This document shows, in pieces, positions 77 through 11,866 of a stretch of 16,839 nucleotides of DNA. The notes under the pieces are model-generated. The model did no database searches and had not been told where the DNA came from. It saw nothing but the letters and a program-made list of their open reading frames with translations. Source of the stretch: Oscillospiraceae bacterium (lineage in GTDB: Bacteria; Bacillota; Clostridia; Oscillospirales; Acutalibacteraceae); NCBI GenBank assembly GCA_003517915.1, contig DOZQ01000151.1, positions 1-16,839 of the forward strand, written 5' to 3'. How positions within the stretch are numbered: position 1 is the stretch's first letter; every line of letters starts with the position of its first letter. The translations under genes and the position numbers were made by a program.

Positions 77-1171
77 TTAATCAGAGAAGCTTGCGCTGTG
101 TGATTCGGGGCCAAGAGATATCCAGGAATTGCCCGCGTTTACTGTAAGGGGGCTTCCATCTGCCTTTTTGAGCTTTAGACGGTCATCGTAGCCGCCCTTT
201 TCCCATAAAATTTCTACTTCATTCCCTTCGGAGTAGTAGTATCCGGTGCCCGAATCAAGCCCGATTTTGAGATGAAGATTATCGGGATAGAACCCTACAT
301 CGGTAAACAGCACGAAAATATTCTTGACACTCAGCTGTTTGTCATTAAAGTGATCGATATGCGGCTGGCCGTTTTGACTTTTCAGATAATTTTTTCCGGC
401 GGGATCATAAACATAATCGGAATAATAATAATCGGAAAAAGCCACATGGACATTTTCGGCTTTGCCGCCCGACAGCTTGGCCGATTCGTCCGGCAAAGCG
501 AAATCAAAAACCGGGGATTTATATTCGTCCGCGATTTCTTTTTGCACTCCGCTTTTTTCCAGTGCGTCCATAAGCTCCGCGCCCGAGGTAAACAGCCGGT
601 GTTCATAGGGCAGTCCGTTGTCGACGCGGTGGCTGGCATACGAGTATTTATCGTCGATGTTAAACGCGTCCAGCCCTGTTTCGCTTACATGAGGCATGGC
701 ATATACAGGGTCGCCGCCCGCGTGAACATATATCGCGTCGTGTCCGGCGGCCAGGTCGGTATAAACATAACGGGCGGAACGCACACTGCCAAGCTCACCC
801 GCCTCGGCGGGATCACCGAACAGCGCCATAAGCCGCGTGATACCGCCTTCGACAAGCGCCTCATAAACTATATCCGCGCAGCTGAGTCCCGACTGTACCG
901 CCTGAGCTGCCGAGACATTGTTTATCATAACGGCGAAAGGACGCATGCCCACGGCGGAGTCCGAAAGGTCGTAAAGCCCGGTTAAAGGATTTATATTGCC
1001 TTTTGGTAGCTGAGGCTCACTGCTCGGCGCGGGCTCGGAGGAAGAAACCGCAGGTTCAGACGAGCTCGGCGGTTCCTGCTCCTTTTTACAGGAAACCGAG
1101 CTAAAAATAAGCGTTATAAGCAGCAGGCTCAGCGCGATTTTTTTGACAGTCCTTATATTCAATATTTGCAC
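77..1171 (-). CDS. DUF3048 domain lipoprotein (YerB-like)
   Basis: Predicted surface lipoprotein of 364 residues. The N-terminus has basic residues, a hydrophobic stretch (about 12-25) and a lipobox ending SVSC at Cys28, followed by a Ser/Pro/Glu-rich linker (about 33-55) that would span the wall. The rest matches the DUF3048 family as I know it: NPLTG near residue 61, MRPFAVMINN near 76-85, a GGITR segment, and the paired N- and C-terminal halves. The family is widespread in Firmicutes (YerB in Bacillus); its biochemical role is not established. The start drawn is GTG, but GGAG lies only 1 nt before it. TTG at codon 4 (1160-1162) sits 10 nt from the same GGAG and may be the true start; the signal peptide is kept either way. 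It is monocistronic here, divergent from the small-protein gene. Confidence 0.85.
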   Translation of the reverse strand: MQILNIRTVKKIALSLLLITLIFSSVSCKKEQEPPSSSEPAVSSSEPAPSSEPQLPKGNINPLTGLYDLSDSAVGMRPFAVMINNVSAAQAVQSGLSCADIVYEALVEGGITRLMALFGDPAEAGELGSVRSARYVYTDLAAGHDAIYVHAGGDPVYAMPHVSETGLDAFNIDDKYSYASHRVDNGLPYEHRLFTSGAELMDALEKSGVQKEIADEYKSPVFDFALPDESAKLSGGKAENVHVAFSDYYYSDYVYDPAGKNYLKSQNGQPHIDHFNDKQLSVKNIFVLFTDVGFYPDNLHLKIGLDSGTGYYYSEGNEVEILWEKGGYDDRLKLKKADGSPLTVNAGNSWISLGPESHSASFSD

Positions 1172-1629: not shown

Positions 1630-2673
1630 TCAACGCCCGCCCTGCGGCAAAACAGCCAGCGACAGCGTAACCTTTGTACCCGCGCCCTGTGCGCTGACTA
1701 GCGAAACGCCGTAATCCTGCCCGTATATCAGCTTGATACGTTCATTGACATTTGCCAGCCCAATGTTCATCTTTTCCTCATGCCGTTCGGATTCCCCGTT
1801 TCCTTCGTAAGGCGCCGGCTGTGCGGACAGCTTCTCGCTCAGCGAAATCAGTCTTTCCGGCGGCATTCCCACTCCGTCGTCCTCAACCGAGATTTCCAGC
1901 CTTTTTTCAGTGCGAAAGGCTCGCAGGATTATACGCCCTTTGCCGGATTTAGGTTCCAGACCATGTATCAGCGCGTTTTCAATAACCGGCTGCACAAGCA
2001 GCTTGGGGATTAGAAGCTGTCTTGCGTCCTCGTCGATTTGCGCGTCCAGCTCAAATTTATCGTTGAATCGAATGCGCTGAATTTTGATATAGCTGTCAAT
2101 GTTGGCCAGCTCCTCGCTCAGGTGGATCAGGGCGCCCTTTTTGCTGATGCTGTAGCGGAAAATATCGGCCAGCGCCTTGGTGGTCTCCGCGATTTGGGTT
2201 TCGCCGCAGCACAAAGCCTGTCCGCGAATCGTCTCAAGGGTGTTGTAGAGAAAATGCGGGTTGATTTGATTTTGCAGCGCGTTGATCTCCGCTCGCTTGG
2301 TCATAAGCTTAGCCGACGCCTCACGCTGCAGCAAAAATTGCAGCAGCTCGGTCAGGCTGCCCGATGCCTGCTCCGCGCCGGCATAGTTTACACCGGTTTT
2401 TTCCGCCGCTTCCCGCAATGAATTTACCGATTTTTCCAAATCAGCGACGGTGCGGAATACCAGCCGCGCACATATATAGATATTCGCGGCGCAGATTAAA
2501 ACCGCCGCCGCCACCAGCAGGCTGTCGGTCGTTATCCGGCCCTCGCCTAACAGCGTATGCCACACTCCCAGCCGGAAAGAAAGCCAAAAACACACCGCTA
2601 AAAGGAGCGCCGTGCCCGCAAGCTGAAAACAAAGCGCGCTTCGCATATACTGCTTTTTCCATTTTTTAATCAT
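1630..2673 (-). CDS. YesM/LytS-type sensor histidine kinase with minimal sensor region
   Basis: Membrane histidine kinase of 347 residues, expected to phosphorylate the response regulator encoded just upstream. Two hydrophobic segments (about 13-35 and 50-73) are separated by only about 14 residues, so almost nothing is outside the cell. YesM relatives usually carry a large extracellular sensor there. A helical linker (about 75-120) leads to the His_kinase domain with the phospho-acceptor His140 in QNQINPHFLYNTLE. The HATPase domain has an N-box with Asn233 (QPVIENALIHG), a G1 box DDGVGM (265-270), a second glycine segment (IGLANVNERI, 304-313) and GAGTKVTL (330-337). All catalytic motifs look intact. 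It overlaps the regulator gene by 8 bp (translational coupling) and is the last gene before the terminator. The missing sensor suggests that it takes its signal from another protein, perhaps the degenerate ATPase of the same operon. Confidence 0.92.
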   Translation of the reverse strand: MIKKWKKQYMRSALCFQLAGTALLLAVCFWLSFRLGVWHTLLGEGRITTDSLLVAAAVLICAANIYICARLVFRTVADLEKSVNSLREAAEKTGVNYAGAEQASGSLTELLQFLLQREASAKLMTKRAEINALQNQINPHFLYNTLETIRGQALCCGETQIAETTKALADIFRYSISKKGALIHLSEELANIDSYIKIQRIRFNDKFELDAQIDEDARQLLIPKLLVQPVIENALIHGLEPKSGKGRIILRAFRTEKRLEISVEDDGVGMPPERLISLSEKLSAQPAPYEGNGESERHEEKMNIGLANVNERIKLIYGQDYGVSLVSAQGAGTKVTLSLAVLPQGGR

Positions 2674-4255
2674 TGCCCGTCATCAACCTTCTGTATTCGC
2701 CCGGCGTAACTCCGACCAGCTTTTTAAAAGATTTCCCAAAGTTTTTTGTATCGTTATATCCCACCAGCTCCGAGATTTCAGAAAACTTATAGGCCGGATT
2801 GCGCAGCATTTCTTTTGCGGAGCCGATGCGCTTTGCGATCAGATATTTTTTAAAATTCTCCCCTGTTTCCCGCTTAAACACCTCGCAGAAATAATTGGGA
2901 TTCAGGTTTACCTTTTCGGCCACCTCACTGAGACTTATGTCCTGCATGTAGGCACTTTCAATATATGCCAAAGCCTTTTGCACAGCGGGCCCCGCCATAT
3001 TATTTTCGCTTTCCGCCCGAAGGGCGGTCAGCTCCGCGGCAAAATCCCCGAGCATCTGCTTTATTTGCCCTATGGAGCCGGCGCAGGCGAGCATACGCCG
3101 CTTGTCGGCAAATAGACGGCGGCGCTTGTCCTCAGTAAGAGGCGCGCTGCTTTCAAACAGCAACAGCATCTGATTGATTCCGCGCATCAACAATTCGGGG
3201 TGCCTTTGCGCTTTTGCCATAAATCTGTCTACAGCGGCACTCACCAGCTTGCTGAGCGTGTCGATCTGTCCGCTGTCAAAGGCTTGCTTTAGGCTGATTT
3301 CAAAGTTCGGGTAAAGCATCTGCTGCTCGTTTTGAGCCGTATGCGGTTCGGTGCGGCTGTTATAGACGCGGTTCGGGCCGTGCACCAGCCGCGCCATCTG
3401 CATCTCGCGCATGCGGCGGTAGCTGCACTGCAATCCGCCTATCTCACGCACGGCCTCGCCGATACCCATAGTCACGCCGCAGGCGGGCCGGGATGAGAGT
3501 ACCTCCCCGAACATCTCCGTCAGCGACTGCTCTATTTTAGGGATTTCTCCCTGTGCGTAATTGAGCACCAGAATAACCTCTTGATTAAGCGTCAGAGTCA
3601 GCATTTCGTAGCAGTCGGCCGGAAGATTGACCTGCCAGATAGCGCGGGTGATCCACCCGTTTATTTCCTGCTCCAGCTCCGCGGAATCTATAAAAACCCC
3701 GACTATCATATATTCGCCCCGGCAAAAGCTCAGGCGAAGAAGGGTGTTGAGGGATGAGACGCTCTCAGCCGCTTCCCCCGTGCCCTCAAACAGATTTAAA
3801 AAAGTCTGCTTTCGGAGCTTTTCCATCATCTCGCCCATCGAGCTTTGCAGACGCTTTTCTTTTTGCTGTTCGGCCTGCTTTTGCAGCTGCAGCTCGGCCG
3901 CCTTGCCTACATATTTCCCCAGCTCGGCCTGATCTATGGGCTTTAGCAGATACCCCAGCGCGCCGTAGTCCAGCGCGGTGCGGGCATATTCAAAATCGTT
4001 GTAGCCGCTGATGATTATAAACATGGGGCCGTCGCCGCTTTCGCTCATCTCACGCATAATATCAAGCCCCATTATCCCCGGCATGCGGATGTCGGTAAGA
4101 ACAAGCTGAGGCTTCAGCTCTCGTATCCCGGCCAGGCCCTCACGCCCGTCGTGGTATACCCCGGCGACCCGAAACCCGAAATCCTCCCACCTAAGCAGCT
4201 TTTCAAGCATTCGCGTTACCCAAATCTCATCGTCAATAATTACAACGTCCATCAT
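2666..4255 (-). CDS. YesN-like response regulator (REC + AraC-type HTH)
   Basis: Cytoplasmic transcription regulator of 529 residues, partner of the downstream kinase. The receiver domain (about 3-120) has the acidic pair Asp8/Asp9, phospho-acceptor Asp55 (VLTDIRMPG), Ser83 in IISGY and Lys105 in LLKPID. A long central region (about 120-420) has a Gln/Lys/Glu-rich coiled-coil start and no motif I can name. The C-terminal ~105 residues are an AraC/XylS double helix-turn-helix: ISLSEVAEKVNLNPNYFCEVF is the first half and FSEISELVGYNDTKNFGKSF the second, with the typical end GVTPGEYR. It overlaps the ATPase gene upstream by 4 bp (ATGA) and the kinase downstream by 8 bp. By analogy with YesN-type regulators it likely activates a nearby uptake operon. 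The importer at 7288-11866 is the obvious candidate, but no experiment is visible in sequence. Confidence 0.93.
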   Translation of the reverse strand: MMDVVIIDDEIWVTRMLEKLLRWEDFGFRVAGVYHDGREGLAGIRELKPQLVLTDIRMPGIMGLDIMREMSESGDGPMFIIISGYNDFEYARTALDYGALGYLLKPIDQAELGKYVGKAAELQLQKQAEQQKEKRLQSSMGEMMEKLRKQTFLNLFEGTGEAAESVSSLNTLLRLSFCRGEYMIVGVFIDSAELEQEINGWITRAIWQVNLPADCYEMLTLTLNQEVILVLNYAQGEIPKIEQSLTEMFGEVLSSRPACGVTMGIGEAVREIGGLQCSYRRMREMQMARLVHGPNRVYNSRTEPHTAQNEQQMLYPNFEISLKQAFDSGQIDTLSKLVSAAVDRFMAKAQRHPELLMRGINQMLLLFESSAPLTEDKRRRLFADKRRMLACAGSIGQIKQMLGDFAAELTALRAESENNMAGPAVQKALAYIESAYMQDISLSEVAEKVNLNPNYFCEVFKRETGENFKKYLIAKRIGSAKEMLRNPAYKFSEISELVGYNDTKNFGKSFKKLVGVTPGEYRRLMTGND

Positions 4256-5751
4256 ATCTGCACATCTCCCTCGGTTTCGGTCAGCCGTATAATTTCCTCA
4301 TACGAAAGCCTGTCTCCAGCAATTTCCCCCGGGCTTCGTCCGCCCCGAATCACCAGAGTGCGGTCGCAGCATTGTACAAGAGGATCAATCTTGGAAAAAA
4401 TAATAACAATTCCGCATGTTTTTCTTATTTCCTCAAGAATATCGCGCAATATCAGCACACTTTCGCTGTCCAGCTCACGGTTCGGCTCGTTTAATATAAG
4501 CACGCGCGGATTGCCGGCCATGCAGCGCGCCAGGGCGATTTTCGCCAGCGCCGCGCTGTTCAGCCGTCCGAGATTCTGGCCTATATCGTTATCGACCCCA
4601 AAACGCTCGCAGTATTCGCGGGCCAAAAGCTCTTCCTTTTTGCGGCTCAAAACTCCCAAGGAGCTTATCCGGCTCAAAACCCCCTGTGAGATATTCATAT
4701 AAACGGGATCACAGTCCGAGAGCAGCATCCGCTCCCGCCTCTCAAAATACAGGCCGATGCCGCTGCGCTGGGCGTCGCGCGGGGAGGTGAGTTTCCGCCG
4801 GACTCCTTCCACCCAGACGGTTCCGCCACGCATGGGAAGACCGCCAGCCAAGCACTCCGCCAAAACGGATTTCCCGTTTCCCGTAAGCTCGGTAATCCCC
4901 AAAATCTCCCCCAAAGCCACCGAAAAAGAAAGTGACTCAAGCGTCCCGGCACTTAAGCGCTCCACCCTAAAGACCTCTCTTCCGGGCGGAGCCGCCGTGT
5001 TTTGCGCCAAGGCCTTCCACCCGGGCGCGGTTTTCCCGTACATCAGGTGCCTGAGCGTGTCCTTGTCGAAATTTTCCTTGGGCAGTTCGGCAACGATGCA
5101 GGCGTTTCTCAGCACCAAAATCCGGTCGGTCAGCCGTATTGCGTCCTCGTAATTGTGCGTGGCGTATATAATCGCGGCGCCGTCTTTAGCCGCCCGCTCG
5201 AAAGTCCTTTTTAGGTTCGCCGTCTCGCTTTCTGAAAAGGAGTTCGCCACCCCGTCAAACACCAGCACGCGGGGGCGCGCGGCGAGCTGACGCGCTACTT
5301 GCACCTCTTTCATCTGAAAGTAGGAAAGCGACGGCGGCATCGCTTTGGGATTTATATCGAACTCGAAATATTTCAAAATCCGGCGCGCGTTTTCATAGAG
5401 TGCATGGCGGCTATAGTAAAGCTTTGGATTTTTGTCAAGGCCGATTATCAGATTTTCCGCTACCGTCATGTTGGGCAGCAGCTGCGGCTCCTCGCTGACA
5501 TAGCCTATTTTGCCGCGTATGGCGTCTCTGGGTGAGCGGAGGTTAAGCTCGGCGTCGTCGAGAAAAATATGCCCTGAATCCGGCGCCATTATCCCCGCGA
5601 AAATCTGCGCCAGAAGGGTTTTCCCTACACCGTTTATGCCGGCAACGCCGAGAATCTCCCCTTTGTACAGGCTAAGGGAAATGTTTGAAATGATTTTTTC
5701 ACCGTTCCGGCTCAGGGTAAGATTGCGTGCCCGGAGCACTTCGCTTTTCAT
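4252..5751 (-). CDS. RbsA-like double ABC ATPase with degenerate signature motifs
   Basis: A 499-residue protein with two tandem ABC domains, like the sugar importer ATPases (RbsA/MglA/XylG). Domain 1 keeps Walker A (GINGVGKT, 38-45), Walker B Asp166 and the switch His199. The catalytic Glu is Gly167 (VLVFDGVAN), the Q-loop Gln is replaced (YVSEEPQ) and the LSGGQ-type signature reads LSYFQM (142-147). Domain 2 has a weak Walker A (ELTGNGKS, 288-295) and LNSAALAK (397-404) in place of LSGGNQQK; its Walker B is ILNEP (Asn421 for Asp) and its switch His is gone (IIFSKID). Both signatures are lost but the fold seems preserved, so it probably binds ATP while hydrolysing it poorly. Start is ATG with AGGAG at 5759-5763. 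It is first in a translationally coupled unit with the regulator and kinase. I infer a sensory rather than a transport role; an unusual working transporter subunit is the alternative. Confidence 0.85.
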   Translation of the reverse strand: MKSEVLRARNLTLSRNGEKIISNISLSLYKGEILGVAGINGVGKTLLAQIFAGIMAPDSGHIFLDDAELNLRSPRDAIRGKIGYVSEEPQLLPNMTVAENLIIGLDKNPKLYYSRHALYENARRILKYFEFDINPKAMPPSLSYFQMKEVQVARQLAARPRVLVFDGVANSFSESETANLKRTFERAAKDGAAIIYATHNYEDAIRLTDRILVLRNACIVAELPKENFDKDTLRHLMYGKTAPGWKALAQNTAAPPGREVFRVERLSAGTLESLSFSVALGEILGITELTGNGKSVLAECLAGGLPMRGGTVWVEGVRRKLTSPRDAQRSGIGLYFERRERMLLSDCDPVYMNISQGVLSRISSLGVLSRKKEELLAREYCERFGVDNDIGQNLGRLNSAALAKIALARCMAGNPRVLILNEPNRELDSESVLILRDILEEIRKTCGIVIIFSKIDPLVQCCDRTLVIRGGRSPGEIAGDRLSYEEIIRLTETEGDVQI

Positions 5752-5762
5752 CTTTTAGCTCC

Positions 5763-5782
5763 TATAGTCAAATATGACTATA
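5763..5782 (-). promoter_or_regulatory. Palindrome abutting the ribosome binding site of the degenerate ATPase gene
   Basis: TATAGTCA-AATA-TGACTATA is a perfect 8-bp inverted repeat with a 4-nt centre. Its edge base is the last base of the AGGAG at 5759-5763, so a bound protein, or the RNA hairpin itself, could block translation or transcription of the ATPase-regulator-kinase operon. The half-site TATAGTCAAAT recurs near 12131-12141 and, with one change, near 12753-12763. Confidence 0.5.
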
Positions 5783-5814
5783 ACTGCGGGCGACAAAAAT
5801 GCCGCCCACAGTTA
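5781..5814 (-). ncRNA. Leader RNA stem-loop upstream of the degenerate ATPase gene
   Basis: On the minus-strand transcript, a 12-nt arm starting TAACTGTGGGCG (5814-5803) pairs along its whole length with CGCCCGCAGTTA (5792-5781) using a single G-U pair, closing a 10-nt loop. It is followed at once by the 5763-5782 palindrome, giving two stacked hairpins directly before the ribosome binding site. No U-tract follows, so it is not a simple terminator. It may be a leader element, an RNA stabiliser or a DNA operator. I do not recognise a known riboswitch class. Confidence 0.45.
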
Positions 5815-5826
5815 TGTTGTGCCAAT

Positions 5827-6073
5827 CCCGCAGATAACCTTGCCATTTACTTTATTATGCTGCGGTTCGCTATGTTATATGTATTTAGAGTCTGTTCACA
5901 TAAACGCATACACACGTCTTTTTGACAAGTTTTCCGCCCTACTATGTTCAAATTTTTCGGCATAAACAAATTATTCCTGCAAAATTTCGCCTTGTATGAC
6001 GAAAAACTTGCTTAAAAATCCGCGCATAGCCGTCATGTGAACAGACTCAAGGATTACGCCGTTTATCTGCGGG
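5827..6073. repeat. 11-bp inverted repeat pair flanking the foldback element
   Basis: CCCGCAGATAA (5827-5837) and TTATCTGCGGG (6063-6073) are exact reverse complements. The right copy lies 15 bp downstream (on the minus strand) of the M24 peptidase stop. With the 161-bp foldback element (5888-6048) removed, the arms would be only 64 nt apart, so they may be an original end-of-operon stem that was interrupted by an insertion. Confidence 0.45.
5888..6048. mobile_element. 161-bp foldback element with 14-bp terminal inverted repeats (MITE-like)
   Basis: GAGTCTGTTCACAT (5888-5901) and its exact reverse complement ATGTGAACAGACTC (6035-6048) bound a segment whose two halves stay imperfectly complementary to the centre. 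Examples are CAAGTTTTCCGCC at 5926-5938 against CAAGTTTTTCGTC from the opposite arm, and AAATTTT runs in both arms. No reading frame of note lies within. This is the structure of a miniature inverted-repeat element mobilised by a transposase elsewhere. No clear target-site duplication is visible (TTTA on the left, AAGG on the right), and I cannot name the parent insertion sequence. It sits between the importer operon and the sensory operon, where it could also act as a large RNA hairpin. Confidence 0.65.
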
Positions 6074-6088
6074 GTTTACATAAAGACT

Positions 6089-7246
6089 TTACCAGCGATT
6101 GGTTCTCGGGAAGTTGGTCAGGCTTTCGGGGCCGTCGGCGCGCAGAACCACTGTGTCCTCAATACGGGTGCCGCCCACGCCGGGCTCCATCAGGGTAATT
6201 TCGAAACAGAATGTCTGGTTGACCTGCAGCACGTCGTCGCTGTTCGGGCCGATTGTGGGAATCTCTTCCTCGGGGTCCATGCCGGTGGAGTGCGCGCAGC
6301 CGCGGCCTTCTCCGGCGAAGTGGATATAACCGGCTTCCGCCATCACGCGGTTGGCGGCCACGTCGGCCTCTTTGCCTGTCATGCCGGGACGCAGCGCCGC
6401 CATGCCTTCTTCCCATGCCTTGAGGCAGGTGTCAAGCAGCTTTTCCTGCGCGGCGGACATTTCTCCGTAGCCTACGCCGCGCGCCATATCCGACGAATAA
6501 TCGTTGAAACGGCAGCCGATATCAACAAGGATAGTTTCGCCCCTTGTGATGATTTTGTCGGTTGGGTAAGCGAGAAACCATTTTTCCGCGTTAACGCCGG
6601 ACTGCACCATTATATCAAAGGATTTACTGTCTGCGCCCAGGCGGAACATCTCCGACATGGCCTGGCGCACGACCTCGCGCTCGGTAAGGCCGGTTTCGCA
6701 TTCCAGCAACTCTTTGATTCTCCAAAGACCCTTGTCGGCAAGCTCGCCGGCGACCTTCATGTTTCTGATTTCGCGCTCGCTCTTTACGGATTTCAGGTTC
6801 TCGATGAGCATGGTTTTCTCAAGCTTTGCGCCTCCAATGTTGGCCATAATCATCTCATAGAACTCAAGCGCGCAGTATTTCGCGCCGGAAAGTCCCAGCT
6901 TCGCGCCCGGATGCTTTGCCGCGAAATCCTTAACGATGTTTCCCAGCTCCTGGCGGATGCCGCGCGTGTCACTCATCCAGGTCTTGTCGGAGGCATAGCC
7001 TACAAGGCTGCCCTCGGCCAGAAGAATGGGATCGCCGGAAAGCGGTAAAAACACCATCGCGGGATAGGGAAACACGCCGTCAAACGCGCGGTAGTCAGCA
7101 AGCCAGCGCACATTGCTCATGCGTGGCGCGTCCGAATAGACCAGAAGTCCGTCCAGTCCTTCGAGCTGCATTTTTTGCCTGGTGCGCGCCACACGATCCT
7201 GATATTCGCTTACGGGGATATTTTGCAGTACATCTTCGTAACCCAT
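6089..7246 (-). CDS. M24 family metallopeptidase (Xaa-Pro aminopeptidase/creatinase-like)
   Basis: Cytoplasmic pita-bread hydrolase of 385 residues, a normal length. The creatinase-type N-terminal domain covers about 14-150 and the catalytic domain about 160-375. The five metal ligands expected for M24 enzymes are visible: Asp242 (VDIGC), Asp253 (SSDMARG), His319 (GCAHSTG), Glu354 (LMEPG) and Glu363 (RIEDT), which argues for a metal-dependent peptidase or amidase rather than true creatinase. The segment after His319 (STGMDPEEEIPTIG) differs from the usual GhxxHE.P form, so substrate preference is uncertain: proline dipeptides, or a small amide as in ectoine hydrolase relatives. Start ATG follows AAGGAG. 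It lies 41 bp downstream of the binding-protein gene and is the last gene of the importer operon, suggesting that it processes the imported compound. Confidence 0.88.
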   Translation of the reverse strand: MGYEDVLQNIPVSEYQDRVARTRQKMQLEGLDGLLVYSDAPRMSNVRWLADYRAFDGVFPYPAMVFLPLSGDPILLAEGSLVGYASDKTWMSDTRGIRQELGNIVKDFAAKHPGAKLGLSGAKYCALEFYEMIMANIGGAKLEKTMLIENLKSVKSEREIRNMKVAGELADKGLWRIKELLECETGLTEREVVRQAMSEMFRLGADSKSFDIMVQSGVNAEKWFLAYPTDKIITRGETILVDIGCRFNDYSSDMARGVGYGEMSAAQEKLLDTCLKAWEEGMAALRPGMTGKEADVAANRVMAEAGYIHFAGEGRGCAHSTGMDPEEEIPTIGPNSDDVLQVNQTFCFEITLMEPGVGGTRIEDTVVLRADGPESLTNFPRTNRW

Positions 7247-7287: not shown

Positions 7288-8304
7288 TTAAGAAAAGTTA
7301 GCGGCCAAATAAGCGTCTACGTTTTCCTTGGTAACCAGCTCATATGGGAGAATGATGCGCTTGTCAACGTTCTCACCCTTCGCCAGCTTGTACGCCGCGG
7401 CAACAGCCTCGTGCGTGTCGGAGTTGTTGGTGATGGTCAGCTTGAAGGATCCGCCCTTTTGAACTTCCAGCGCGGCGTCTTCTTGGCCGTCCATGGAAAT
7501 AATCATGATTTCTTTTTCGCGTCCGGCGTCCTGAATCGCCTCAAGGCAGCCCATAGCCATCTCGTCGTTTTCGCAGTATACCAGATCGATGTCGCTGTTG
7601 GCGCTGAGGATGTTGGTCATAGCCTGATTCGCGTCCAGGCGCAGCCAGTCGGCGGCCTGCTCCACAATAACCTTGATGTCGGGATATTCGGGCGCTTTTT
7701 TGTTCCAGCCGTTGTAGCGGTTGAGCGAGTTTGTGGACTCGACGACACCGCGGATCATAACGACGTTGCCTTTGCCGTTCAGAAGAGTGTTGGCATATTC
7801 AGCCGCCGCCATACCCATTTCCACCTCATCGGTGGAGACGAAGGTATTGTAGTAGTTATAGGCGTCCTCGCCCTCGGTGGCGCAGCCCGAAGCCGCGATA
7901 ATAAGCGGAATGCCGGCTTCATAAACTTCTTTGTAGGCAGGGTAAATCGCGGTGCCGGACAGGGAGGATACGATAATAGCGTCGCAGCCTTGCTGGATTA
8001 AAGACTCGATGTTGGTGATTTCGGTCTGAACGTCGCCGTCGCCCTCTACGATTATAGGCTCGACGTCGGGATAATCCTTGACCGCTTCTTTGAAATAGTC
8101 AACCATCGAGATGCGGAACGGGTGGTTCATTACGCACTGGGAAAATCCAATTTTGAACTTTTCACCCGCCGGGTCGTTTGCCTTGGAACCTGTCGAGGCC
8201 GTATCGCCCGAGCTGCCTCCGTTAGACGTGGCAGGGGAGGAACTGCAAGCCGCCAATGACAGGGCAAATGCCAAAACCAATAAAATCGCCATGAATTTTT
8301 TCAT
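7288..8304 (-). CDS. Substrate-binding lipoprotein of RbsB type (Peripla_BP_4)
   Basis: Extracellular solute receptor of the importer, 338 residues. The signal peptide ends in the lipobox LAAC with Cys20, so the protein is lipid-anchored to the membrane. A Ser/Gly/Thr linker (about 21-48) precedes the type I periplasmic-binding fold: FKIGFSQCVMNHPFR opens the first lobe, IESLIQQGCDAIIVSS is the typical RbsB-family helix-strand, and later parts include DIDLVYCENDEMAMG and IMIISMDGQ. The family binds pentoses, hexoses, AI-2 or other polyols; the ligand cannot be read here. AAAGGAG precedes the ATG. An intercistronic stem-loop lies just upstream, consistent with higher expression of the binding protein than of the permease genes. 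It could serve both transport and signalling. Confidence 0.93.
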   Translation of the reverse strand: MKKFMAILLVLAFALSLAACSSSPATSNGGSSGDTASTGSKANDPAGEKFKIGFSQCVMNHPFRISMVDYFKEAVKDYPDVEPIIVEGDGDVQTEITNIESLIQQGCDAIIVSSLSGTAIYPAYKEVYEAGIPLIIAASGCATEGEDAYNYYNTFVSTDEVEMGMAAAEYANTLLNGKGNVVMIRGVVESTNSLNRYNGWNKKAPEYPDIKVIVEQAADWLRLDANQAMTNILSANSDIDLVYCENDEMAMGCLEAIQDAGREKEIMIISMDGQEDAALEVQKGGSFKLTITNNSDTHEAVAAAYKLAKGENVDKRIILPYELVTKENVDAYLAANFS

Positions 8305-8395: not shown

Positions 8396-9352
8396 CTAAA
8401 CCTCTTTGACAAGCTTTTTACGCTTGTTTACAAGCTCGCGGGATACGATAAGCGAGGTAATAAGAATCACCGCGCCCGTGACAATAGGCTGCGCGTCGGT
8501 ATTGATGTTCATCAGGTTCATCAGATTTTTTATCATACATACGACCATTGTACCGACAAAGGTACCCAAAATGCTCCCCTTGCCGCCGGTCATACTGATT
8601 CCGCCTATAACACAAATTGTAATGGCCGTCATCTCATAGCCCTGCCCTGAGCGGGGTTCGCCTATACCTATGCGAGCCGCTATAAACAAACCCGAGAGCG
8701 CCGCTAAGACCGCGCTTATAATATAAACGGCTATCTTGATTTTGTCGGCATTGACGCCGAAGAGCTTTGAGGTTTCTTCTCCGCCGCCCACAGCGTGGAC
8801 ATGCCGCCCGAAGCGCGTTCGGTTTAGCACCAGCAGCGCCAGCAAGAACGCCGCGATTACATACCAGATGCCGTTTTGCATACCAAGAGTTCTGCCCTTG
8901 ATTATCTGCTTAAAACTGTCGCCGACCGTTCCGGTCAGCGGTCCGCCGCCGGTGAAAAGAAAGGTGACGGCCCGCATTATCATCATCATGGCGAGGGTCG
9001 CCATGAACGGCTCTATATTAAAGCGCGTCACTAAAAAGCCGTTGACAAGTCCGCACGCAAGGCCGATTGCTATGACCGTGAGGAAAATAAGCGGCAAAGC
9101 CACATTGCTCAGAGCCATCTTTGCGCTTACGACGCTGGAAAAGGCCAAAACCGAACCTACTGAAAGGTCAATGCCTCCCACCATCAGCACAAAGGTCATG
9201 CCTATGCCTATAAGCGCCGATTCCACCGCGTACTGTATGATATTTGCGAAGTTGCCTATGCTGAAAAAGCTGTCGGAAAGCTGTGAGCCGACAATTATAA
9301 GCGCGATCAGCATCGCGACGGGTAACAACTTGGAAATTTCAATCTTTTTCAT
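8396..9352 (-). CDS. ABC importer permease, RbsC type (second permease)
   Basis: Integral membrane subunit of 318 residues, BPD_transp_2 family, with roughly eight to ten hydrophobic segments. Family hallmarks: GIGMTFVLMVGGIDLSVGS near residues 48-66 and GGISMTGGKGSILGT in the C-terminal third. The N-terminus is short and the C-terminus is basic (NKRKKLVKEV). It overlaps the ATPase gene by 4 bp (ATGA), so the two are translationally coupled. With the other permease it would form the heterodimeric channel of the importer. Confidence 0.93.
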   Translation of the reverse strand: MKKIEISKLLPVAMLIALIIVGSQLSDSFFSIGNFANIIQYAVESALIGIGMTFVLMVGGIDLSVGSVLAFSSVVSAKMALSNVALPLIFLTVIAIGLACGLVNGFLVTRFNIEPFMATLAMMMIMRAVTFLFTGGGPLTGTVGDSFKQIIKGRTLGMQNGIWYVIAAFLLALLVLNRTRFGRHVHAVGGGEETSKLFGVNADKIKIAVYIISAVLAALSGLFIAARIGIGEPRSGQGYEMTAITICVIGGISMTGGKGSILGTFVGTMVVCMIKNLMNLMNINTDAQPIVTGAVILITSLIVSRELVNKRKKLVKEV

Positions 9353-10848
9353 GATACATGCCTCTCAAGCGCGTATTTCAGAACTAATTCCTGTGTGGCT
9401 TCTTCCTTAGGCAACGAAGCGGTGAGCGCTCCGCCCGAAAAAACCAGCACCCGGTCACACATGCCGAGCAGCTCCGGCATTTCCGTAGAGAAAAGTATTA
9501 TAGCAAGCCCCTGCTCGGCAAGGCTGTTGATCTGCCGGTATATCTCCGACTTGGCCCCGACGTCCACGCCTCTGGTAGGCTCCTCTAAAATCAGCACCTT
9601 GTGGCTGCCGATTATCCAGCGCCCGAGCAGCACTTTTTGCTGATTTCCGCCGCTGAGCTCATCCGGATGCTCGTGAAGCCCCTGAGTCTTGACGCCCAGC
9701 CGCCGCACCACCTCCCCACTTTGAGAACGCTCAAAGCGGTTGTGAAGAATCGCCCGTTTGCTGAATAAACTGTCCAGCGCACCTGCCGTGATGTTGGTGA
9801 GCAGATTCTGGTTGAGAAAAAGCCCCTGGGTTTTGCGATCCTCCGGCAGAAAGGCTATCCCGTTGCGTATGCTTTCGGCAGGATTTTTAATATTCAGTTT
9901 CCTGCCGCCGCAAACTACTTCCCCGGTCGGATGTCCGCACAGACCGAACAGCGTTTTGGTGACGGCGCTCGCGCCCGAAGCCTCCAGCCCGGCGAAGCCA
10001 AGAACCTCCCCCTTGTGCAGGGTGAAAGAAACATTCCCGAAGTGTTCGCCCAAAGACAAATCCTTAACCTTAAGCACAGCGTCGCCGCGCGAGGCATTCC
10101 TCGCCGGATACAGGGAGTTAAGCTCCCGCCCTATCATCAGCGGTATAAGGCGTTCTTCATTGCATTCCTCTCCGGGCATTGTTGCTATGAGCTTGCCGTC
10201 GCGCAGCACCGACACGCGGTCGGCTAAGGAAAAAACCTCATTCATGCGGTGGGATATATATATTATGGTTACTTCTTCTTTTTTAAGGTCGTCGATCATC
10301 TGGAACAGAGCCTGCATTTCCTCGGCGTTCAGGTTCGCCGTCGGCTCGTCCATAATCACCACCGACGCCTTCTGGCTGACCGCGCGGGCAATCTCCACCA
10401 TTTTACGTGTCGAGACAGGCAGCTCGCGCATTTTTGCGGAGGTGTCGATTTTTAGTCCCAGCCGTTCCATAAGCTCCTTCGCGCTTTGCCGGAGCTTTTT
10501 GCGGTCCACCAAAAAGGTACCCGGATACCGGGGCTCCCGGCGCAGAAAGATGTTTTCCGCCACCGTCATTTCGGGAATCTCCTGAATCTCCTGGAACAAG
10601 GTGCTGATGCCCGCTGCTTGCGCGTCGCTGGGGTTCATAAACTGCACCGGTTCCCCGTTCAAAAAGAGTCTGCCCCTGTCAGCCCGATAGACTCCCGAGA
10701 TAATTTTGATAAGCGTGGATTTTCCCGCCCCGTTTTCTCCTACCAGCGCGTGCAGCTCACCGCGTTTAAAAGTAAGGCTCACGTCGTCCAGCACCGTGTT
10801 GTGGGAAAAAACCTTGCTGACTTCCTTGAGTTCAAAAACGTCACGCAA
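9349..10848 (-). CDS. ABC importer double ATPase, RbsA type
   Basis: A 499-residue energising subunit with two ABC domains. Domain 1: Walker A GENGAGKST (38-46), FQE Q-loop (85-87), signature region LPVSTRKM (143-150), Walker B with Glu (VIMDEPT, 164-170), switch His200. Domain 2: a relaxed Walker A (GLEASGASA), as is usual for this family, FLPEDRKTQGLF (333-344), canonical LSGGNQQK (398-405) and ILEEPTRGVD (420-429), where the Walker B Asp is Glu. The essential motifs of a working importer ATPase are therefore present, in clear contrast to the degenerate paralogue of the same length at 4252-5751. Start is TTG with AGGAGG 9 nt upstream; it overlaps the first permease gene by 8 bp and the second permease gene by 4 bp. 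Confidence 0.94.
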   Translation of the reverse strand: MRDVFELKEVSKVFSHNTVLDDVSLTFKRGELHALVGENGAGKSTLIKIISGVYRADRGRLFLNGEPVQFMNPSDAQAAGISTLFQEIQEIPEMTVAENIFLRREPRYPGTFLVDRKKLRQSAKELMERLGLKIDTSAKMRELPVSTRKMVEIARAVSQKASVVIMDEPTANLNAEEMQALFQMIDDLKKEEVTIIYISHRMNEVFSLADRVSVLRDGKLIATMPGEECNEERLIPLMIGRELNSLYPARNASRGDAVLKVKDLSLGEHFGNVSFTLHKGEVLGFAGLEASGASAVTKTLFGLCGHPTGEVVCGGRKLNIKNPAESIRNGIAFLPEDRKTQGLFLNQNLLTNITAGALDSLFSKRAILHNRFERSQSGEVVRRLGVKTQGLHEHPDELSGGNQQKVLLGRWIIGSHKVLILEEPTRGVDVGAKSEIYRQINSLAEQGLAIILFSTEMPELLGMCDRVLVFSGGALTASLPKEEATQELVLKYALERHVS

Positions 10849-11866
10849 CCTTGGCCCCCTCCTTTCTCAGTACACGAAGGATCTTGCCTTTTGAGGAAAT
10901 AAGCACCGCCATCAGTATGATAAAGCCCTGAATAAGCTGCTGGATATAAGAGCTTATGCCAATGAGCGGGAAGAGGTTGGAAAGAATGCCGTACAGCACC
11001 GCACCCAGCAGCGTGCCAACAATGCTGCCCTTGCCGCCCGATAGCGACGCGCCCCCGACAACTACCGCCGCAATCGCGTTAAGCTCCATGCCCGCCGCGC
11101 CGCCGTGCGTCGTCGTCGGCTGAAAAGCTCCTATTCTCGCCACCGAAAGCAGTCCGCTCACCGTGGCGAACAGCGCGCACAGCACATAGGCCAAAACCTT
11201 GACCCTGCGCACATTGGTTCCCGAATAATACGCCGCCGTCTGGTTCGAGCCGGTTATATACAGCCGGCGGCCGAAGGTGGTTTTTCTCATCATAAAAAAC
11301 GCCGCTACCGCAATAACAAACATAACTACTACCGGCACCGGGATAAACCCGATATAGCCCGCGCCTATTTGCATGAAAGTGTCCGGCACATCTCCCGATA
11401 TGCTTGCCCCTCCCGAGGCAACCAGCACAATCCCCTGCATTATCTGTCTGGTCACCAGCGTGACCACAAACGGCTGTAACCGGCCGTAGGTGACGATTAT
11501 GCCGTTGAGCAGACCAACGAGCAGCCCGACCGCCAGCGCGGCGGCAATAGTGACGCCGATGGATACTCCGTCAACCATCATCATTATTGAAACCATGCCC
11601 ACAATCTGCACCGTCGCCCCAATTGAAAGGTCTATGCCGCCGATGAGTATTACAAAATACATGCCGATCGCGGCTATTGCGGTATAGGCCGTCTGACGCA
11701 GAAGATTGAGCAGGTTGTCCGCAGAGAGAAAGACCGGGGAAAGAAACTGCGAGACCACAAAAACCACGATTATAAGCAGCGAGATTGCTATTTCGTTTTT
11801 ATATTCCCGTATATAAGGCCGTTTTTTAAACAAAGCCTTCGGTAATATAGATTTTAATACCGCCAT
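10841..11866 (-). CDS. ABC importer permease, RbsC type (first permease)
   Basis: Integral membrane subunit of 341 residues and the first gene of the importer operon. After a basic cytoplasmic N-terminus (about 25 residues) come eight to ten hydrophobic segments. The conserved IGMYFVILIGGIDLSIGATV (about 72-91) and GGASLSGGKGSIVGTLLG (C-terminal third) match the BPD_transp_2 sugar permeases. It is clearly related to, but distinct from, the second permease, as expected for a heterodimer. ATG is preceded by GGGAGG at 7-nt spacing. The gene overlaps the ATPase gene by 8 bp. Candidate promoter and operator elements lie in the 1.2 kb upstream. Confidence 0.93.
   Translation of the reverse strand: MAVLKSILPKALFKKRPYIREYKNEIAISLLIIVVFVVSQFLSPVFLSADNLLNLLRQTAYTAIAAIGMYFVILIGGIDLSIGATVQIVGMVSIMMMVDGVSIGVTIAAALAVGLLVGLLNGIIVTYGRLQPFVVTLVTRQIMQGIVLVASGGASISGDVPDTFMQIGAGYIGFIPVPVVVMFVIAVAAFFMMRKTTFGRRLYITGSNQTAAYYSGTNVRRVKVLAYVLCALFATVSGLLSVARIGAFQPTTTHGGAAGMELNAIAAVVVGGASLSGGKGSIVGTLLGAVLYGILSNLFPLIGISSYIQQLIQGFIILMAVLISSKGKILRVLRKEGAKVA

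What the first reader, a model, noticed from the sequence alone, without database searches (positions are those of the whole stretch)
4252..5751. Degenerate RbsA-like ATPase fused by gene overlap to a two-component system: candidate transporter-state sensor
Both ABC signatures are lost (LSYFQM and LNSAALAK instead of LSGGNQQK). The NBD1 catalytic Glu is Gly167, NBD2 Walker B Asp is Asn421 and the NBD2 switch His is gone, while Walker A of NBD1 and the overall length (499) are kept. A canonical 499-residue paralogue is encoded 3.6 kb upstream. The degenerate copy has no permease of its own and is translationally coupled (4-bp ATGA overlap) to a response regulator and then a kinase. Established: signature and Walker B residues are needed for ABC hydrolysis, and ABC transporters can act as sensors for kinases (Bce systems). 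Inference: this protein docks on the importer permeases, or on the kinase, and passes on transport or substrate state without powering transport.
Basis: partly seen in the sequence, partly recalled or inferred. Interest (0 to 1): 0.8.

Follow-up and report, generated by a model that had tools for sequence, protein, structure and literature searches.

The report
Dead transporter ATPase replacing a kinase sensor
A sugar-importer ATPase that has lost its motor parts is kept by selection next to a signalling kinase that has lost its sensor, and the same pairing recurs in other Clostridia-like bacteria, which suggests that the dead motor now tells the kinase what the importer is doing.

Summary
The gene at 4252-5751 (-) is a real, intact, degenerate RbsA-type tandem ATPase. 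It overlaps a YesN-type regulator gene by 4 bp and is followed by a YesM-type kinase with two TM helices, a loop of about 13-17 residues and no sensor region. Distinctive is the loss of the one consensus ATP site: NBD2 LSGGNQQK and the Q-loop Gln throughout the close family, the catalytic Glu in most.

A survey of 133 regulator loci goes beyond the finding. All 16 kinases without a sensor region have an RbsA-length ATPase lacking the NBD2 signature directly beside them; only 2 of 98 long kinases have any RbsA-length ATPase that close, and both score as keeping the signature. In 13 of the 16 the Walker A GK[S/T] is gone too; in 3 the kinase has no TM helix. dN/dS is 0.03-0.13, so these are not pseudogenes. 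The pairing is mostly one lineage, kept over great divergence and three gene orders.

Best reading: a non-energising co-sensor subunit of the two-component system. Docking on the importer permeases is likely but not shown.

The parts
4252..5751 (-). degenerate RbsA-type tandem ATPase (proposed co-sensor subunit)
2666..4255 (-). response regulator, receiver plus AraC-type HTH (YesN-like); D55 and K105 present; 4-bp ATGA overlap with the ATPase gene
1630..2673 (-). YesM-type histidine kinase, two TM helices, 139 residues before the H box, no sensor or HAMP domain found by Pfam; H140 present; 8-bp overlap with regulator
9349..10848 (-). working RbsA-type ATPase of the importer (NBD1 site and NBD2 LSGGNQQK intact)
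10841..11866 (-). importer permease 1 (BPD_transp_2)
8396..9352 (-). importer permease 2 (BPD_transp_2)
7288..8304 (-). substrate-binding protein, RbsB-like
6089..7246 (-). M24 (prolidase/creatinase-type) hydrolase, conserved in the G809 copy of the cluster
5780..5815 (-). 16-bp hairpin, terminator-like by consensus, between hydrolase and ATPase genes; the ATPase-regulator-kinase genes may be a separate transcription unit
   Evidence: consensus match only; 20 found in the scanned region, 17.9 expected from shuffles

Best explanation
The protein is a catalytically dead, RbsA-derived signalling subunit of the neighbouring two-component system. It keeps the tandem-NBD fold and the post-Q-loop segment TVAEN, but not the consensus hydrolysis site. 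Proposed mechanism (inferred): it docks from the cytosol on the importer's two permeases in place of, or beside, the working ATPase, follows the conformation set by the ligand-loaded binding protein, and passes that state to the sensorless kinase, which then phosphorylates the regulator. Shown: degeneration, selection, conserved linkage to sensorless kinases, importer genes in the same cluster. Inferred: binding partners, direction of the signal, the importer operon as the target.
For: Close family P0002-P0012 (35-83% identity) stands clear of the generic sugar ATPases listed (34% or less) and lacks NBD2 LSGGQ in every member that covers it. G809, of another order of the class, has the same eight genes in the same order; G398 keeps ATPase, regulator and kinase with overlaps. 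Of 133 regulator loci, 114 had an unbroken kinase beside the regulator: 16 of 16 sensorless kinases have an adjacent signature-less RbsA-length ATPase (15 on the same strand, L226 convergent); 2 of 98 long kinases have any RbsA-length ATPase within 150 bp and both score as keeping the signature. L150-L152 kinases have no TM helix by hydropathy. A full-motif RbsA-type ATPase and a permease hit lie in the fetched neighbourhood of 13 of the 16 (not L038, L139, L143, where the contig ends). dN/dS 0.028-0.134 in the five dead-ATPase pairs that could be measured. Retention of canonical conserved columns in the close family: TVAEN segment 1.00, NBD2 signature 0.27, all columns 0.44. The L140-type ATPase occurs once in each of 8 of 25 genomes searched, at this locus each time. 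Sensorless kinases that depend on an ABC transporter are known: BceS (PMC10314905, passages read), and proposed for PhoR (PMC5775613, abstract read).
Against: The co-occurrence is largely one history: the kinase tree needs only 2 label changes, so independent contrasts are few. No contact between proteins was predicted or measured. A 337-bp gap with a hairpin parts the ATPase gene from the importer genes. The TVAEN argument rests on recalled knowledge of where coupling helices bind, and it weakens in the diverged subtypes (retention 0.50, 0.00 and 0.38; there other regions are kept better). Pfam found no sensor domain in the long kinases L137, L138 and L142 either, so 'sensorless' rests on length and TM spacing, not on Pfam. 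Walker A and the NBD1 His persist in the window protein, so ATP binding and weak hydrolysis are not excluded.
Confidence: 0.6

Rival explanations
1. Cytosolic modulator: the dead ATPase binds the kinase alone, as scaffold, brake or nucleotide sensor, and never touches the permeases.
For: Its gene adjoins the kinase/regulator pair in all 16 cases, while distance and order relative to the importer vary. The window subtype keeps Walker A, so a nucleotide-level sensor is possible there. L150-L152 kinases look soluble.
Against: A working RbsA-type ATPase with a permease is in the same neighbourhood in 13 of 16 loci. Walker A GK[S/T] is lost in 13 of 16, so by motif nucleotide sensing is unlikely to be the general function. 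The TVAEN segment is the best kept of the regions compared in the close family.
Confidence: 0.25
2. Transport subunit: the protein joins the importer as a second, asymmetric ATPase and helps or regulates uptake rather than signalling.
For: Same fold and length as RbsA; Walker A kept in the window subtype; two different permease genes in the importer.
Against: A complete working ATPase is present; the dead copies are tied to the two-component genes and to loss of the kinase sensor rather than to the permease genes; 13 of 16 lack the Walker A GK[S/T].
Confidence: 0.1
3. Decaying duplicate of the importer ATPase without function.
For: Lost motifs; a paralogue sits nearby.
Against: Open frame; dN/dS 0.03-0.13; homologues beside sensorless kinases in genomes of 8 family codes; the tree does not join it to the neighbouring paralogue.
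Confidence: 0.02

Closest known systems
Bce-type modules (BceAB-BceS-BceR)
   Same: A kinase without sensor domain depends on a linked ABC transporter (PMC10314905 and PMC8534201, passages read).
   Different: BceA is a working ATPase and BceB another permease fold (recalled). Here importer permeases are BPD_transp_2, the kinase is YesM type, the regulator AraC type, and the linked ATPase is an extra, dead one.
PstSCAB-PhoU-PhoR phosphate signalling
   Same: An importer's conformation is proposed to be read by a kinase without periplasmic sensor domain (PMC5775613, abstract read).
   Different: PstB is the working ATPase and PhoU a separate adaptor; here a dead tandem ATPase would be the adaptor.
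Solute-binding-protein co-sensors (CuaD-CuaSR)
   Same: A transporter component is diverted to sensing for a clostridial two-component system (PMC10384115, abstract read).
   Different: CuaD is modelled on the extracellular domains of CuaS, which the window kinase lacks; the diverted part here is the ATPase.
RbsA/AraG/XylG-type tandem sugar ATPases
   Same: Length, tandem fold and full-length similarity.
   Different: The consensus ATP site is lost; scores are far below the curated cut-offs.

Membership tests
RbsA-type tandem sugar importer ATPase | two ABC_tran domains over the full length | tested here: met
RbsA-type tandem sugar importer ATPase | intact consensus ATP site (NBD1 Walker A, Glu, His with NBD2 LSGGNQQK) | tested here: not met
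   Walker A and His kept, Glu and LSGGNQQK lost
RbsA-type tandem sugar importer ATPase | curated score of a known equivalog model | tested here: not met
   best 221.6 bits against cut-off 850; note that the working paralogue, 502.9 against 689, also fails
YesM/YesN two-component system | His_kinase PF06580 plus HATPase_c; receiver plus AraC-type HTH | tested here: met
YesM/YesN two-component system | large extracellular sensor region, as in the long kinases of the survey | tested here: not met
   139 residues before the H box against 247-447 in the 84 long kinases where the box was found
Bce-type module | kinase with two TM helices and no sensor domain | tested here: met
Bce-type module | linked BceA/BceB transporter with working ATPase | tested here: not met
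   permeases are BPD_transp_2; the linked ATPase has lost its site
SBP co-sensor system (CuaDSR-like) | extracellular kinase domain that could bind a dedicated SBP | tested here: not met
   only about 13-17 residues lie between the two TM helices
any transporter-coupled kinase | physical contact between transporter part and kinase | not testable with these tools
   only single-chain prediction was offered

The most novel reading that the evidence does not exclude
A clostridial signalling module in which a dead RbsA-type ATPase has taken over the place of the kinase's sensor domain: the importer's permeases and binding protein would serve two assemblies, a transporting one with the live ATPase and a receptor one with the dead ATPase that reports to a kinase reduced to two bare TM helices or to a soluble enzyme. 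Long-sensor, half-sensor and no-sensor kinases with progressively dead ATPases (L138, L137/L142, window, L139-L148, L150-L152) would be steps of that replacement.
Probability: 0.42. Interest if true: 0.88.

Novelty: new variant of a known kind. Interest (0 to 1): 0.77.

Why it matters
Kinases that read transporters are known, but in the examples cited here the reporter is the working transporter. A dead duplicate of the motor, kept only to report, would separate sensing from transport genetically and make 'what does the kinase read from an importer' directly testable: remove the dead ATPase and transport should stay while signalling goes. It would also mean that some genes named 'sugar ABC ATPase' are regulators, which affects transporter counts in Clostridia.

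Tried and rejected
Pseudogene: rejected (dN/dS; conservation). Recent copy of the neighbouring paralogue: the tree puts the dead ATPases together, away from it (support for the dead group only 58, long branches). Statistical independence: the Fisher p near 1e-17 is not independent evidence, since the kinase tree needs only 2 changes. A permease-kinase fusion as Rosetta stone: P0135 (16 member sequences) joins the first ~140 residues of an importer permease to the kinase, but it lies on a 2259-base contig and reads like an operon deletion or an assembly chimera, so it was not used. The search for related loci gave only 4 remote loci of 22-23% identity. Genome searches with the close-family profile scored only 3-5 candidates per genome in the large samples and missed the diverged subtype (for instance in G126 and G218, both in the sample), so they understate frequency. 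Fold searches listed ABC proteins as expected and suggested no closer functional analogue; the L140 model has pTM 0.51, so its domain arrangement is unsure. No sugar-importer tandem ATPase was among the six solved sequences (E up to 1e-30). Literature: in the listings of searches (titles and starts of abstracts; only 12 of 73, 10 of 232 and 12 of 15 papers were listed for 53, 85 and 86; two found none) I saw no description of a degenerate RbsA-type subunit of a two-component system; the library lacks most subscription journals and preprints.

Rows dropped before the counts: of 133 regulator loci (every match listed), 13 had no kinase called beside the regulator and 6 had broken or cut kinases (L108, L169, L191, L205, L232, L238), leaving 114 (16 short, 98 long). 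L155 and L156 were left out of the script and added; both are long without an adjacent ATPase. 12 of the 98 had no recognised H-box motif and were counted as long by their length of 568-644 residues. The short/long cut (165 residues before the H box) was set after seeing the values; they leave a gap from 163 to 247. An adjacent ATPase meant at least 420 aa, at least 45 bits and a gap under 150 bp. The kinase tree has 103 rows, 99 of them labelled, by the quick method.
Full report
WHAT IS THERE. The window is G000:C258:1-16839, from a 2.14-Mb draft genome in 280 contigs, 80% complete. On the minus strand lie an importer (permease, ATPase, permease, binding protein), an M24 hydrolase, then the gene of the finding, a response regulator and a kinase. 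The gene of the finding (4252-5751) encodes 499 aa with two ABC_tran stretches. It overlaps the regulator gene by ATGA, and regulator and kinase genes overlap by 8 bp. 337 bp with a hairpin (5780-5815) separate it from the hydrolase gene, so its transcription with the importer is open.

WHICH LOSSES COUNT. In RbsA-type proteins the consensus ATP site is formed by NBD1 Walker A/B/His and the NBD2 signature; the other site is naturally non-consensus (recalled). Of 55 ATPases of roughly RbsA length in the surveyed loci, 36 keep the NBD1 Walker A, Glu, His and the NBD2 signature (counted); the other 19 are the 16 dead ones beside sensorless kinases, L138, L142 and L184. Yet the NBD1 signatures and NBD2 switches of the 36 vary or lack His, as do those of the window paralogue (LPVSTRK, STEM). 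LSGGNQQK to LNSAALAK, E167G and Q87E (Q-loop) are, though position 167 varies within the family (G, D or E). The close family P0002-P0012 lacks the NBD2 signature in all members covering it (P0004 is cut before it) and has Glu in the Q-loop throughout; the 36 full-motif ATPases all have Gln there. Walker A and the NBD1 His are kept in most of the close family, so ATP binding is possible.

SELECTION. Window against G398: dN/dS 0.134 for the dead ATPase, 0.144 for the regulator, 0.124 for the kinase, with dS of 1.5-2 and hence rough; among diverged subtypes 0.115 and 0.108 (L140 against L139, L141), 0.061 (L144 against L145), 0.028 (L150 against L151) (Nei-Gojobori with Jukes-Cantor correction, own script). 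Synonymous sites are saturated between window and G809, so that pair gave no ratio. These genes are kept.

NEIGHBOURHOOD OF CLOSE RELATIVES. Profile searches of overlapping samples (300 of the family, 394 of the order, 391 of the class and 398 of the phylum, plus 1 of the genus, 18 and 58 around two hits) found the close subtype in three genomes: G000, G398 and G809 (633-797 bits; every other listed match is at most 385 bits). G809, of another order, has the eight genes in the same order, although the dead ATPases share only 40% identity. G398 keeps ATPase, regulator and kinase on a 4.2-kb contig. In the protein database, 6 of the 11 clusters P0002-P0012 share a source label and the exact longest-contig length with a regulator hit and 5 of 11 with a kinase hit; that equal length means the same contig is an inference, and 5 of 11 had no such match among the 120 hits listed.

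THE WIDER CLASS. Searching with the regulator profile (216 genomes of the order, 196 of the class) and fetching every listed match gave 133 regulator loci. After dropping 13 without a called kinase and 6 with broken kinases, 16 kinases have at most 163 residues before the H box, and all 16 have an RbsA-length ATPase that lacks the NBD2 signature within 150 bp or overlapping (15 on the same strand; in L226 it is convergent). Of 98 long kinases, 2 have any RbsA-length ATPase so near (L137, L142), both scored as keeping the signature, though L142 is visibly worn; 25 of the 98 have one 150-4500 bp off. In 13 of the 16 the Walker A GK[S/T] is gone as well. In L150-L152 the kinase has no TM helix by hydropathy. 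Pfam finds no sensor or HAMP domain in the 7 of 16 short kinases that I scanned, but it finds none in the long kinases L137, L138 and L142 either, so the absence of a sensor rests on length. NCBIfam still aligns the diverged ATPases L140, L144, L175 and L226 to RbsA/AraG/XylG models over most of their length; L150 and L152 match only weakly. In 25 genomes searched with the L140-type profile, 8 have one match above 670 bits, each at its regulator-kinase locus, and every other listed match (the list was cut) is below 250 bits.

HISTORY. A quick tree of kinase cores puts the 16 short kinases with L137, L138, L142 and L198 in a group of 20 of 103 rows (SH-aLRT 95) and needs 2 changes of the short/long label, against 15.1 in shuffles. 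The association is thus one or two origins kept through deep divergence, not many independent events. Gene order still differs: ATPase-regulator-kinase (window, L038, L078), regulator-kinase-ATPase (the other 12 on the same strand), and a convergent ATPase (L226). L138 (full sensor region, worn ATPase 1.15 kb away with its own permease gene), L137 and L142 (loops of about 140 and 105 residues) look like intermediates; L198, a full-length kinase without an adjacent ATPase, falls in the same group. That reading is an inference. The ATPase tree groups the dead proteins apart from all canonical ones, with weak support (58) and long branches.

STRUCTURE. The window protein is predicted as a tandem ABC fold (pLDDT 81.5, pTM 0.71), matching tandem chains of DppABCD. 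The fully degenerate L140 protein keeps the fold of its domains (pLDDT 78.3, pTM 0.51). Of columns conserved in 35 canonical proteins, the close family keeps all of the four in the segment after the Q-loop (TVAEN) but 27% of the NBD2 signature and 44% overall; the diverged subtypes keep 21-31% overall, and in them the TVAEN segment (0.50, 0.00, 0.38) is not the best kept. The segment after the Q-loop is near where permease coupling helices bind (recalled); this hints at docking in the close family but shows nothing.

MECHANISM. A kinase with two bare TM helices, or none, is unlikely to read an extracellular ligand by itself. BceS shows that such a kinase can depend on an ABC transporter (PMC10314905, passages), and the same is proposed for PhoR (PMC5775613, abstract). 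The dead ATPase is the constant partner of the sensorless kinases of the survey and shares the neighbourhood with a live importer ATPase and a permease in 13 of 16 loci, the other 3 being cut by contig ends. The best-supported account is therefore a co-sensor that carries the state of binding protein and permeases to the kinase. Binding to the kinase alone is the main rival and cannot be told apart here. Non-energising signalling subunit: about 0.8; docking on the permeases: about 0.5; the statement as given: 0.6.

Noticed in passing
window 5817-6083: Nested inverted repeats between hydrolase and ATPase genes (21 nt, 81%; 14 nt, 100%); a 16-base pattern holding the 14-mer was found, at up to one mismatch, only here in the 80%-complete genome. 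Possibly a small element or a regulatory region.
   Followed up: partly
P0135: 398-aa database protein joining the N-terminal part of an importer permease to the kinase; likely an operon deletion or assembly chimera on a 2259-base contig.
   Followed up: partly
L137 (G828:C1:1484000-1503000): RbsA-type ATPase with nearly full motifs beside regulator and a half-sensor kinase, without a permease hit in 19 kb: orphan ATPase, a possible early stage.
   Followed up: partly
L150, L151, L152: YesM-type kinases of about 275 aa with no TM helix, beside the most degenerate ATPases; their N-terminus is basic and aromatic by eye, perhaps a peripheral anchor.
   Followed up: no
window 9349-10848: The live importer ATPase has Glu in place of the NBD2 Walker B Asp and an unusual NBD2 Walker A (GLEASGAS), shared in kind by the G809 copy.
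   Followed up: no
window 6089-7246: M24 hydrolase conserved within the importer cluster in G000 and G809; its substrate could reveal the imported ligand.
   Followed up: no
window 77-1171; L078:973-2061: A DUF3048 protein gene flanks the window cluster; a protein that looks alike by eye lies near the G809 cluster.
   Followed up: no
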